From Halovivax cerinus (lineage in GTDB: Archaea; Halobacteriota; Halobacteria; Halobacteriales; Natrialbaceae): a DNA stretch of 64,000 nt. Shown here piece after piece: positions 6,737 through 33,212 of this stretch (position 1 is the first letter of the stretch; each line of letters opens with the position of its first letter). The notes below the pieces were generated by a model. The model had not been told where the DNA came from. It was given only the letters and a program-made list of their open reading frames with translations, and did not search any database. The position numbers were made by a program, and so were the translations under genes. The stretch is taken from positions 2,790,001-2,854,000 of the forward strand of contig NZ_CP101824.1 of NCBI RefSeq assembly GCF_024498195.1, read 5' to 3'.

Positions 6737-8170
6737 ATGCCCAGCGAGGGTCGCGAGCGCGGCGTAACCGTCGTCATCGGAGCCGTGCTCATGTTCGGTC
6801 TGCTCGTCTCCGCCCTCGCGATGTACCAGGTCAACGTGGTCCCGACGGAGAACGAACAGACCGAGTGGGACCACCACCAGCGGGTGACCGGCGATCTGAT
6901 CGATCTCCGAAACGCGATCGTCAACGCCGGAAATCAGGACACGACGCGGGAAGCCTCGATCGAACTCGGCGCCCAGTACGACTCACGGACGTTTTCGATC
7001 AATCCGCCAGATCCGGGTGGAACGATCAGAACGAATTCGACGGGTACCCCGCAGGTCGAGATCACGTTCGACGACGGGTCGACGGAGTCGTTCGACACCT
7101 CGTTCGTCGAGTACGAACCCGACTACACCGAGTACGACGCGCCGACGACGATCATCGAACACGGACTCGTCTACGACGAACACGGTCACGTGAACGTTAC
7201 GCGCGACGCCGGTAGCGTCGTCTCCGACGAGCGGATCGTCGTTCCGCTGATCGAGGGCGACCTCTCCGAGTCCGGCCGGTCGAGTGCCTCCGTCACCGTC
7301 GAGACGATAGACGTCTACCACGTGTCGTCTGACGTCGACGAGATTCGACTCCCGACGAACGCGTACTCCAGGTGGGACGACTCCTACGAGGTATCCGAAA
7401 GTGGAGACCACGCCGTCGTAGACCCCAAGAGCGATCAGGAGGTCTACGTCGCCCAGATCGCGGTCGGAGACGACCGCACCGCCAACACTGACACCAGCGA
7501 CAAATTGAACGAGTTCGGTGACCCGGTAACGGATCGCGGAAGTCCGACGGAGACGAACGAGTTCGGCCTCGCGTGGACGGACGATTCCGTTACCGCCTCG
7601 CCCGGGAACTCTGTGACCCTCACCGCGACGATCGACGACGATGTCGAGAACGCGTATGCGGACTTTTCGCTCCGTGATCCGAACGACGTCGTCGACGACT
7701 ACGATCCGAAAAATCGGATCGCCTTCGACGAGAACGCCGAAGCGTCGTTCGACGTGGCCCTCGCGAACACTGCGAACGATGGAGACGAAGTGACGGTGTA
7801 CGTCTCCAGCGGCGGAACCACTAGAGAGGCCACGGTGACGGTTCAACGCGGTAGTGGTGCCCCGACGATCGACAATCTGGATGCACGGAGCCAGGACCAT
7901 TCGAACCACGCCCGTTTCGACGCGGAGTGGGAGGCGACCGCCGGCGACAGTCCTATCACGGCAGCGACGATCGAACTCGTCGATCGGTCGACGGGAACGG
8001 TCGAAGATACCGTGTCGTACGACGCAAGCGACATAGACGGCCAGAACCCGAGCGATTCCGGCGTGTCTCTCGAGGACAAACAGGGCGCTGGTCAGGAGTA
8101 CTCAATCCGTCTCACCGTCGAAGACGCGAACGGAAACGTCGCCATAGACGAAATCGTTCGAACTGGCTGA
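6737..8170 (+). CDS. Secreted or surface protein with pilin-like N-terminus and Ig-like repeats
   Basis: A 477-residue protein. The N-terminus 'RERGVTVVIGAVLMFGLL' has a positive stretch followed by one hydrophobic helix, as in haloarchaeal pilin-like and DUF7289-type proteins processed or anchored at the membrane. The rest faces the outside and is acidic. From about residue 290 two beta-sandwich-like stretches follow, one starting near 'SVTASPGNSVTLTATI' and one near 'RSQDHSNHARFDAEWEA', which resemble fibronectin/PKD-type modules by their alternating hydrophobic pattern. I infer a cell-surface role. There is no operon partner: DUF2150 is 50 bases upstream and HMG-CoA synthase has its own promoter downstream. 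Confidence 0.7.
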   Translation: MPSEGRERGVTVVIGAVLMFGLLVSALAMYQVNVVPTENEQTEWDHHQRVTGDLIDLRNAIVNAGNQDTTREASIELGAQYDSRTFSINPPDPGGTIRTNSTGTPQVEITFDDGSTESFDTSFVEYEPDYTEYDAPTTIIEHGLVYDEHGHVNVTRDAGSVVSDERIVVPLIEGDLSESGRSSASVTVETIDVYHVSSDVDEIRLPTNAYSRWDDSYEVSESGDHAVVDPKSDQEVYVAQIAVGDDRTANTDTSDKLNEFGDPVTDRGSPTETNEFGLAWTDDSVTASPGNSVTLTATIDDDVENAYADFSLRDPNDVVDDYDPKNRIAFDENAEASFDVALANTANDGDEVTVYVSSGGTTREATVTVQRGSGAPTIDNLDARSQDHSNHARFDAEWEATAGDSPITAATIELVDRSTGTVEDTVSYDASDIDGQNPSDSGVSLEDKQGAGQEYSIRLTVEDANGNVAIDEIVRTG

Positions 8171-30964: not shown

Positions 30965-31351
30965 TTACCCGGTCTTGTAGACGCCCCTGGCGTCGGCAAC
31001 GTGCGCATCGTCGTCGGCCGCGTAGACATCGACGTCGACGACGCCCACGTCGCCGCCCTGACGGACGACGTCGGCTTCCGCGTAGAGGTCACCTGTCCCT
31101 GCGCTCAGGTAGTCGATTCGCATGTCGATCGTCGGCACCGGCTGGTCGACGAGCGAGACGAGTGCCGCGCCGCCGACGGTGTCGGCGAGCGTGAACGTGA
31201 CCCCGCCGTGGGCCATGAGTCGATCCTCGTTCCAGGAGAGATCGTCGGTCATCTCCAGGTGCCCTTCGGCGTGACCGTCGGCACACTCGGTGACTTCGAT
31301 CCCGAGTAACGATGCGAAGGGCATTCCCTCGAAGAACGCTTGCGGATCCAT
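30965..31351 (-). CDS. PaaI-like hotdog thioesterase
   Basis: A 128-residue hotdog-fold protein of the PaaI/4HBT group. 'NEDRLMAHGGVTFTLADTVGG' contains the conserved HGG and the Asp used as catalytic base; 'IDMRIDYLSAGTGDLYAEA' forms the central strands. PaaI-type enzymes hydrolyse acyl-CoA thioesters, in E. coli those of ring-hydroxylated phenylacetyl-CoA. A paa epoxidase operon lies 2-5 kb away on the same strand, which makes a phenylacetate role attractive, but the borosin genes lie between. Start ATG 31351. Confidence 0.88.
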   Translation of the reverse strand: MDPQAFFEGMPFASLLGIEVTECADGHAEGHLEMTDDLSWNEDRLMAHGGVTFTLADTVGGAALVSLVDQPVPTIDMRIDYLSAGTGDLYAEADVVRQGGDVGVVDVDVYAADDDAHVADARGVYKTG

Positions 31352-31511
31352 ACTCGGATGGTATCGAACGGGGACACTAAAACCGGTCCGATCCGTCCGC
31401 GCGACGCGATCGGTACCGTCTCGGTGATTGAGTCGCCCGTATCGGCGAGCCTCGTGGAGACACTGTCGTCTCCGGGTCCACAACTCGGAGAGCGACGACC
31501 AACCTCGTCGG

Positions 31512-32405
31512 TCAGCGCGCCTCGGCCGGATCCTCGTCGCGGGTGATGAACTCCAGGTGCTCTGCGGACTCGATCGTCTCCTGTAACTCCCGGTTCTGTA
31601 CGGATTTTTCCGCCACCGGAGGGACGTACAGCGTCTGTATGGGGTTGATCTCGTCGGCCATGGATTCGAACGCCTGGAGCTCGAACCGCAACAGCTTCGA
31701 GTCGGTGATCGGGTACGTGGCAGTCTGGACGATCGTTACCTCGTGATCGGGCGGATAGAACCGCTCCAAGTACTCTCGAAGCCGCGTGAATCGGGCCGGT
31801 TCGTTTCCGGTGCGCTCAGAGTACTGAACGGCCTCGACCGAGCCGACTTGCCAGATCATCGCCGGGACGTTCGAGTTGAGCTCGAATTCACGGAGCAGGA
31901 GGTCGGTCGCCTCGAACATCTGGATTCCGTTTCGAGACGGATCCAGCCCGAGATCGCAGTAGAGGCAGTCCATCGAGGAGATACCCGGTTGCACTTCGAC
32001 TCTCAGCCCGGCTTCAGTGGCTCGCTCGGTCACCCACTGACTCGGCGTGACGAAGACGAGCGGGTGTCCGTACAGGGCGAACGCGACCGGCCCATCGATC
32101 TCTCCGGCACGGTCGATCACCCGCTGTGCCATCCGCTCGTAGGTCTCGATGCGATGCTCTCCCTCCGTGTACTCCTCGGTGAGGTCGACGAGTTCGTCCA
32201 CCCGGTCGCCGACGTACCGTTCGAGCATCTCGGTGTGGTAGTCGACCGTGAACAACACCTGCGACTTGTCGATAGCCGCCTCGGCCTCGTTCGTCAGTTG
32301 CCTGATCGCGACCATCCCCAGTCCGATGACGTAGATGTCGACCGGATCGTCGCTCACCGCTCTCGCCGCTGATTGGGTAGTTGGCGTCACGTCAGCACAT
32401 ACCAT
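31512..32405 (-). CDS. Borosin-type peptide alpha-N-methyltransferase (split, SonM/OphMA-like)
   Basis: A 297-residue SAM-dependent enzyme of the tetrapyrrole methylase fold. Several blocks match the fungal borosin enzyme OphMA as I recall it, more closely than cobalamin enzymes: 'VIGLGMVAIRQLT' (SAM loop), 'EYTEGEHRIETYERMAQ', 'FALYGHPLVFVTPS', 'VQPGISSMDCLYCDLGLDP', 'MFEATDLLL' and 'IWQVGSVEAV'. The Tyr-Arg-Tyr set of the OphMA site (Y66, R72, Y76) and Y98 have counterparts in 'EEY', 'HRIETY' and 'LYGHP'. Such enzymes methylate backbone amides of a peptide. In OphMA the substrate is fused to the enzyme; here no core is attached, and a short precursor gene lies 171 bases upstream on the same strand. 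Start ATG 32405. Confidence 0.82.
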   Translation of the reverse strand: MVCADVTPTTQSAARAVSDDPVDIYVIGLGMVAIRQLTNEAEAAIDKSQVLFTVDYHTEMLERYVGDRVDELVDLTEEYTEGEHRIETYERMAQRVIDRAGEIDGPVAFALYGHPLVFVTPSQWVTERATEAGLRVEVQPGISSMDCLYCDLGLDPSRNGIQMFEATDLLLREFELNSNVPAMIWQVGSVEAVQYSERTGNEPARFTRLREYLERFYPPDHEVTIVQTATYPITDSKLLRFELQAFESMADEINPIQTLYVPPVAEKSVQNRELQETIESAEHLEFITRDEDPAEAR

Positions 32406-32576
32406 TTCCAGACCTTATTACTTTCGTCTGTAATCAGTACTGTGACACCGCGTCTCGTAGTGAGGGAACGTGTACCGTCGAATCACGGCCGTCCTCCGCC
32501 GACGGTTCGAGGGACCGACGGCCGAGAACGAACGCGGTCGGTGCCGCAGAAGGGTACGCGTTCGACCCTGGCGAGG

Positions 32577-32810
32577 TTAGCGAATCCGAACGATGATCGT
32601 CACTGAGACGTCGGCTCGGTTGACGTCACCCTCGTCGCCTGCGACGGTCTTCACGGTGAGGTCGTCGCCGCTCGTAAGCGCCTCTGTTTCCTCCGCTGTG
32701 AGGTCGTACCCCTCGAGTGCAGCCTCGGGGTCGGTCTGGAACGCGTTCAAATACGATTCGTCGGTCAACGTTTGGTAGACGGCGTCTTGGGCCGTGGCAG
32801 TCGCGGACAT
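32577..32810 (-). CDS. Candidate split borosin precursor peptide
   Basis: A 77-residue peptide encoded just upstream of the N-methyltransferase, on the same strand. Residues about 8-48 form a small helical domain ('DAVYQTLTDESYLNAF', 'TDPEAALEGYDLTAEE', 'TEALTSGDD') with the pattern of the borosin-binding domain of split borosins and of the LigA-like/clasp segment (…DPEAAL…LT.EE..AL.SGD). After a linker 'VAGDEGDVNRAD' comes a C-terminal stretch 'VSVTIIVRIR' rich in Val, Ile and Thr, like known borosin cores, which I propose is the methylated part. An in-frame ATG at 32828 lies upstream of the expected transcription start, so I choose 32810. Confidence 0.75.
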   Translation of the reverse strand: MSATATAQDAVYQTLTDESYLNAFQTDPEAALEGYDLTAEETEALTSGDDLTVKTVAGDEGDVNRADVSVTIIVRIR

Positions 32811-32835
32811 TGCAACAGCGATTTCCATAAACGAT

Positions 32836-32846
32836 CACTTATAGAT
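32836..32846 (-). promoter_or_regulatory. TATA element of the borosin precursor gene
   Basis: On the minus strand 'ATCTATAAGTG', preceded by a purine-rich BRE-like 'CGAAA', is centred about 31 bases before ATG 32810. Transcription would then start near 32815, a few bases before that ATG and after the ATG at 32828. This sets the precursor start. Confidence 0.6.
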
Positions 32847-33044
32847 TTCGTCAGTGGACAAGCATTCGACGGACTCGATACGGTCTCGGCGCACGGGCAA
32901 TCCCGATATCCACGACCGGACGAACCGTCCTCCGTGGTCGAAAACCGGACCGCATCGAGACGGCCGCTACCTGAACCAAGGTGAGAGTTCCGCCCTGGTG
33001 GGCGAGCCTGACTCCGATATTCTACGATACAGCCCACTCTACGC

Positions 33045-33212
33045 TTACTCGAACTTCTCGAACGGCTGCTCGCACGCGGTACAGAAGTGCATCGAGCGAC
33101 AGAGCGACGGCCCTTTCGGGTGCTCGCGCTCGGTCTCCGTCGAACCGCAGTAGGGGCACTCGGCGCCCGACTCGTCCCCGCTCGTCGTCACACTCGGATC
33201 GAATCGTCTCAT
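33045..33212 (-). CDS. Stand-alone PaaD-type zinc ribbon protein
   Basis: A 55-residue protein. Two Cys pairs are visible: 'ECPYCGSTE' and 'MHFCTACEQPFEKF', with a further Cys in 'SLCRSMH'. This matches the zinc beta-ribbon that bacterial PaaD carries at its C-terminus ('CP.CGS..t' and 'FGST.CKa...C..C.epF..fK'). Here the ribbon is a separate gene 16 bases after paaD, which itself lacks it. It is probably the last gene of the paaABCD operon and would help PaaD mature the iron centre of the epoxidase. The start is the only ATG in frame. Confidence 0.8.
   Translation of the reverse strand: MRRFDPSVTTSGDESGAECPYCGSTETEREHPKGPSLCRSMHFCTACEQPFEKFE

What the first reader, a model, noticed from the sequence alone, without database searches (positions are those of the whole stretch)
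31512..32810. Candidate archaeal split borosin: N-methyltransferase with its own precursor peptide
Seen: a tetrapyrrole-methylase-fold protein with blocks that match borosin enzymes ('YGHPLVFVTPS', 'PGISSMDCLYCDLGLDP', 'MFEATDLLL', 'IWQVG'), and 171 bases upstream on the same strand a 77-residue peptide with a binding-domain-like half and a C-terminal 'VSVTIIVRIR' core. Known: borosins (OphMA in fungi, SonM/SonA in Shewanella) are RiPPs with backbone alpha-N-methylation, and split forms keep enzyme and precursor as separate genes. Inferred: this pair makes an N-methylated peptide in a haloarchaeon, probably modified near the last ten residues.
Basis: partly seen in the sequence, partly recalled or inferred. 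Interest (0 to 1): 0.92.

Follow-up and report, generated by a model that had tools for sequence, protein, structure and literature searches.

The report
Haloarchaeal split borosin enzyme–precursor pair
A salt-loving archaeon carries a two-gene insert, absent from its closest relatives, that very probably makes a small peptide and an enzyme that methylates that peptide's own backbone, chemistry so far described (in the papers I could read) only from fungi and bacteria.

Summary
The 297-aa enzyme (31512-32405, minus) matches solved borosin alpha-N-methyltransferases (dbOphMA 1.3e-33, SonM 7e-27) far above any cobalamin methylase. It carries the SonM catalytic triad (Y58/R67/Y71 = Y79/R85/Y89), which the tetrapyrrole methylases compared here lack. 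The 77-aa peptide 171 bp upstream belongs to a RiPP-precursor family (NCBIfam Os17, 2.4e-11, above cut-off). A profile of it and its relatives finds SonA's borosin binding domain as best PDB hit (1.2e-5). Eight other haloarchaeal genomes of 391 carry the enzyme, each beside a BBD-type peptide. In five, an exporter or a prolyl oligopeptidase lies alongside; one precursor has six tandem core repeats. The window cassette is a ~1.68-kb insert between paaE and a thioesterase gene, absent from four congeners. The tree puts the haloarchaeal enzymes with borosins (100/100 against CbiL) but outside the SonM+OphMA clade. Methylation, its sites and the product are not shown, and my complex model failed. 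The window has no linked protease or exporter. No paper I could read describes archaeal borosins, but the main genome surveys were not available.

The parts
31512..32405 (-). Borosin-type peptide backbone alpha-N-methyltransferase (297 aa); Y79, R85 and Y89 match SonM Y58, R67 and Y71
32577..32810 (-). Precursor peptide, 77 aa (83 aa if read from the ATG at 32828): borosin-binding-domain (Os17/LigA-like) leader plus short C-terminal core
32637..32774 (-). Leader: helical borosin-binding-domain region (about residues 13-58 of the 77-aa form)
   Evidence: SonA aligns here; helices at 7-16, 18-26, 28-31, 39-47 in a low-confidence model
32580..32609 (-). Predicted core peptide VSVTIIVRIR (residues 68-77), the likely methylation target
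   Evidence: position after the BBD as in SonA; most haloarchaeal relatives (not L038/L039/L040) and several bacterial precursors carry similar beta-branched tails; site not tested
32838..32843 (-). TATA-like box (TATAAG in sense) about 33 nt upstream of the ATG at 32810
   Evidence: sequence; consensus resemblance only
31368..33044 (.). Inserted segment (about 1.68 kb): no match in the same slot of four congeners, where paaE and the thioesterase gene are neighbours (or flank a different insert)

Best explanation
A split (type IV-like) borosin pair in a haloarchaeon. Inferred by homology to SonM/SonA: the precursor's helical N-terminal domain docks on the tetrapyrrole-methylase-fold enzyme, the C-terminal strand (around VSVTIIVRIR) threads into the active site, and SAM methyl groups are placed on backbone amide nitrogens with Y79/R85/Y89 stabilising the deprotonated amide. 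Shown by computation: homology of both partners, the catalytic triad, conserved gene pairing, and insertion of the cassette relative to congeners. Inferred: binding, methylation and its sites. Unknown: leader removal, export and role of the product; these steps would need unlinked enzymes, since none sits next to the pair here.
For: The enzyme's best solved relatives are all borosin N-methyltransferases, 1.3e-33 to 4.8e-25; the next hit is a precorrin-2 methyltransferase at 0.077. Cobalamin equivalog models score at most 26 bits against cut-offs of 93-391. The Y-R-Y triad is invariant in 22 borosin-like rows, including SonM and OphMA (a divergent Serratia row left out there has Asp for Arg), and absent from SumT, DphB and CbiL; YabN has Y-F-Y. 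The precursor passes the NCBIfam Os17 RiPP model; SonA is the top PDB hit for the single sequence and for the family profile (0.0026 and 1.2e-5). Eight further haloarchaeal enzyme loci each have a BBD-type peptide close to the enzyme. Linked MFS_3, ABC or S9 prolyl oligopeptidase genes occur in five of them and on the Haloarcula plasmid. One relative has a leader with six DDNIGYTGDS repeats, a multicore layout typical of RiPPs.
Against: The haloarchaeal enzymes fall outside the clade that holds SonM and OphMA (100/98), so no experimentally tested member brackets them. The precursor-enzyme fusion model is unusable (pLDDT 36.5). The window lacks a linked protease or exporter. No borosin-specific Pfam or NCBIfam model named the enzyme.
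Confidence: 0.88

Rival explanations
1. The enzyme is a tetrapyrrole or diphthine-type methylase (cobalamin, sirohaem, YabN-like) and the small peptide is a chance neighbour.
For: TP_methylase fold; the methylase part of YabN matches at 4e-21, though 75.6 bits lies far below the 525-bit cut-off for the whole two-domain protein.
Against: PDB ranking, the triad, the tree, and conserved pairing with a BBD-type peptide in all nine haloarchaeal loci. The genome has SumT- and DphB-like proteins elsewhere (named from their sequence).
Confidence: 0.04
2. A borosin-type pair that does not make a released natural product: the methylated peptide acts inside the cell, for example as a self-modified regulator.
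For: No linked protease or exporter in the window; L038/L039 relatives have short, non-hydrophobic tails and no such linked genes.
Against: Exporters and a prolyl oligopeptidase beside other members of the family.
Confidence: 0.2
3. A decaying or orphaned cassette: it was acquired with a transporter or protease that has since been lost, and the product is no longer made.
For: The nearest relatives by the tree (L033, L034, L035) have a linked exporter and the window has none; the only related MFS match elsewhere in the genome is 32% identical over half the query.
Against: Both ORFs are intact, with conserved catalytic residues and a plausible promoter.
Confidence: 0.12

Closest known systems
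SonM/SonA, type IV split borosin of Shewanella oneidensis (Miller et al. 2021, PMC8429565)
   Same: Separate enzyme and precursor; BBD leader; catalytic Y/R/Y triad; core at the precursor's C-terminus
   Different: 26% enzyme identity; haloarchaeal enzymes lie outside the SonM+OphMA clade; core sequence differs; archaeal host
OphMA/dbOphMA, fused fungal borosins (omphalotin)
   Same: Best PDB sequence match (27-30% identity); same triad; haloarchaeal L036/L037 relatives and a Haloarcula plasmid place a prolyl oligopeptidase next to the enzyme, as omphalotin uses OphP
   Different: Precursor is a separate protein here; no POP in the window
Os1348/Os17 and LigA/nitrile-hydratase-leader-like peptides
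   Same: Precursor leader belongs to this sequence group
   Different: Those names cover leaders and domains used with several other enzymes; the borosin-type enzyme beside it sets the expected chemistry

Membership tests
Borosin (split, type IV-like) | Enzyme homologous to characterised backbone alpha-N-methyltransferases | tested here: met
   (dbOphMA 1.3e-33, OphMA 2e-28, SonM 7e-27)
Borosin (split, type IV-like) | Catalytic residues SonM Y58, R67, Y71 | tested here: met
   Y79, R85, Y89; absent from SumT, DphB, CbiL outgroups
Borosin (split, type IV-like) | Enzyme groups with borosins, not with cobalamin methylases | tested here: met
   100/100 against CbiL, though outside the SonM+OphMA clade (100/98)
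Borosin (split, type IV-like) | Separate precursor with a borosin binding domain leader | tested here: met
   by sequence; fold support is weak (no significant E-value)
Borosin (split, type IV-like) | Enzyme and precursor form a complex | tested here: inconclusive
   fusion model with two sequences, pLDDT 36.5
Borosin (split, type IV-like) | Backbone alpha-N-methylation of the core | not testable with these tools
   needs co-expression and MS/MS
Cobalamin/tetrapyrrole methylase | Passes an equivalog model (CobJ, CobF, CobI, CbiE) | tested here: not met
   at most 26 bits against cut-offs of 93-391
NCBIfam Os1348-family NHLP clan RiPP peptide (precursor) | Scores above the curated cut-off of NF038399 | tested here: met
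   43.6 bits against 40; relatives score below it

The most novel reading that the evidence does not exclude
Haloarchaea hold their own lineage of split borosins that branches outside the fungal and bacterial enzymes studied so far. It is spread by lateral transfer (a chromosomal insert, a plasmid) and fitted with different maturation modules: exporters, multicore precursors, and a prolyl oligopeptidase that could cut or cyclise cores such as GIVLP|SSEA. Archaea would then make N-methylated, perhaps cyclic, peptides comparable to omphalotin.
Probability: 0.4. Interest if true: 0.75.

Novelty: new member of a known kind. Interest (0 to 1): 0.58.

Why it matters
If the pair works as predicted, backbone N-methylated ribosomal peptides exist in archaea as well as in fungi and bacteria. 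A halophilic enzyme that acts on a separate precursor could be a useful tool for making N-methylated peptides, and the haloarchaeal clusters with a prolyl oligopeptidase would allow a test of whether omphalotin-style maturation arose more than once.

Tried and rejected
1) Modelling the complex by reading the in-frame TAA stops through (precursor + 57-aa intergenic linker + enzyme; A5): mean pLDDT 36.5, discarded. 2) Precursor alone: pLDDT 55.9; Foldseek ranks Os1348, SonA and LigAB in places 1-7, but all E-values are above 1, so this is only consistent, not evidence on its own. 4) First tree with long-branch rows (Serratia, B. guangxiense, DphB, YabN) was poorly resolved and was rebuilt without them. 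5) Cobalamin methylase reading: rejected. 6) A second precursor in the window's own genome: only the known one scores (2.2e-26); another place at 0.014 lies inside a 692-aa open frame. 7) Literature: no held paper reports archaeal borosins as a finding; Imani 2022 was not held, and Cho 2022 and Lee 2024 did not turn up in the searches.

Full report
What is there. The enzyme ORF (31512-32405, minus, 297 aa) and the peptide ORF (32577-32828, minus; 77 aa from the ATG at 32810) are present as described, 171 bp apart. Homologous precursors begin at the position of the 32810 ATG, and a TATA-like box lies about 33 nt upstream of it, which fits a leaderless transcript; I take 77 aa as the working form.

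The enzyme. Pfam calls a TP_methylase domain (5e-21). Against all solved structures the matches are dbOphMA 1.3e-33, OphMA 2e-28, SonM 7e-27 and MroMA 5e-25; the first cobalamin enzyme follows at 0.077. NCBIfam cobalamin models stay far below their cut-offs. SonM Y58, R67 and Y71, named in PMC8429565 as stabilising the deprotonated amide, correspond to Y79, R85 and Y89. They are invariant in 22 borosin-like sequences and missing from SumT, DphB and CbiL; YabN has Y-F-Y, and a divergent Serratia sequence has Asp for Arg. A 24-row tree separates the borosin group from CbiL with 100/100 support. Within it SonM, OphMA and most bacterial sequences form a clade (100/98) that excludes the haloarchaeal enzymes; Rhodobium orientis joins that clade at its base (87/85). 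Whether the haloarchaeal rows form one clade is unresolved.

The precursor. It passes NCBIfam Os17 (Os1348 family NHLP clan; 43.6 bits, cut-off 40). SonA is its best PDB match (0.0026), and with a profile of nine haloarchaeal precursors SonA improves to 1.2e-5, followed by 6lk7 (Os1348) and a LigA-like stretch of gallate dioxygenase. PMC8429565 itself notes that the BBD resembles domains capping dioxygenases. The tail VSVTIIVRIR follows the leader, like the beta-branched tails of relatives and of bacterial precursors such as S. meliloti GVSVNVTITLGISIP and Bradyrhizobium VIRIRNIRIRFGV. Which residues are methylated is not known.

Relatives. Eight of 391 genomes of the class carry a full-length homologue (41-58% identity): one in the window's family, the rest in three other families. 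In the window's own family only 2 of 125 genomes, the window's included, have it. Every haloarchaeal locus has a BBD-type peptide close by. L033 and L034 add an MFS exporter downstream (Pfam MFS_3). L035 has an ABC ATPase and permease and two precursors. L036 and L037 have a prolyl oligopeptidase downstream and a divergent ABC ATPase, an arrangement also present on a plasmid of Haloarcula sp. CBA1115. In L040 the peptide is divergent and has six DDNIGYTGDS repeats after the leader. L038 and L039 have short tails and no linked module. Bradyrhizobium p155_2 also pairs a borosin-type enzyme with a prolyl oligopeptidase, and the fungal counterpart is OphP (PMC12235650, title and abstract only).

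A second archaeal type. G672, from the same phylum but outside the window's class sample, encodes a 426-aa protein with a BBD-like N-terminus (by eye), a proline-rich linker and a C-terminal methylase (Pfam 4e-10). Its methylase part groups with SonM and a Streptomyces sequence, so archaea appear to have acquired borosin-type enzymes at least twice. It is the only one found among 232 genomes of its class.

Origin of the window cassette. The flanks are paaABCDE (haloarchaeal NCBIfam models for B, D and E, general PaaA and PaaC models) and a hotdog thioesterase. In G100, G207 and G361 the matches to paaD and to the thioesterase gene lie only 253-321 bp apart. Alignment to four congeners stops at 33045-33047 and 31341-31367, leaving about 1.68 kb unique to the window; in G070 the same slot holds an unrelated ABC permease-like ORF. 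GC falls slightly within the insert. No convincing flanking repeat was found; the best is a 30-nt pair at 70% identity, which may be chance. The cassette is therefore an accessory insertion; how it moved is unknown.

Mechanism and certainty. Leader docking, threading of the tail and iterative amide methylation follow the published SonM/SonA mechanism and are inferred here. My attempt to model the complex failed, and a low-confidence precursor model is only consistent with the BBD fold. Leader removal and export have no linked gene in the window.

Novelty. A 2024 review assigns types I-III to fungi and IV-X to bacteria (PMC11285071), a survey of archaeal RiPPs does not mention borosins (PMC12144867), and Miller et al. 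say split borosins are predominantly bacterial (PMC8429565). The main borosin genome surveys were not available to me, so archaeal members may already be listed there. I file it as a new member of a known kind, with a host domain and an enzyme lineage for which I found no report.

Noticed in passing
L040:8540-8893 (+): BBD-like leader followed by six tandem DDNIGYTGDS repeats, divergent from a borosin-type methylase; looks like a multicore RiPP precursor. No match in 390 other class genomes.
   Followed up: partly
L036:7398-10565, L037:5439-8605, L045:6764-9915: Haloarchaeal precursor (core NGIQIAGIVLPSSEA), borosin-type enzyme and prolyl oligopeptidase in a row, one copy on a Haloarcula plasmid; the core has a Pro before SSEA where a POP could cut.
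   Followed up: partly
L043:7407-8687 (G672): Archaeal protein outside the window's class: BBD-like N-terminus, proline-rich linker, C-terminal borosin-type methylase grouping with SonM. No core was identified.
   Followed up: partly
L084:1936-5072 (G070): The same chromosomal slot (paaE to thioesterase) in a congener holds an unrelated ABC permease-like ORF, so the slot takes up different cargo.
   Followed up: no
L087:2205-2438 (Serratia liquefaciens plasmid p2-125): Short ORF with three copies of an HPRLQAAAPMNLAKVIGGF unit beside a divergent borosin-like methylase that lacks the catalytic Arg (Asp instead), a 2OG oxygenase and an MFS gene.
   Followed up: no
L032:7545-8054 (Rhodobium orientis): 169-aa ORF with a BBD-like start (by eye) and a long V/T-rich stretch (TVVTTTTTVNTVTVTTTTTTTPTPTE) directly before a borosin-type enzyme; also a small cysteine-containing ORF at 7211-7489.
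   Followed up: no
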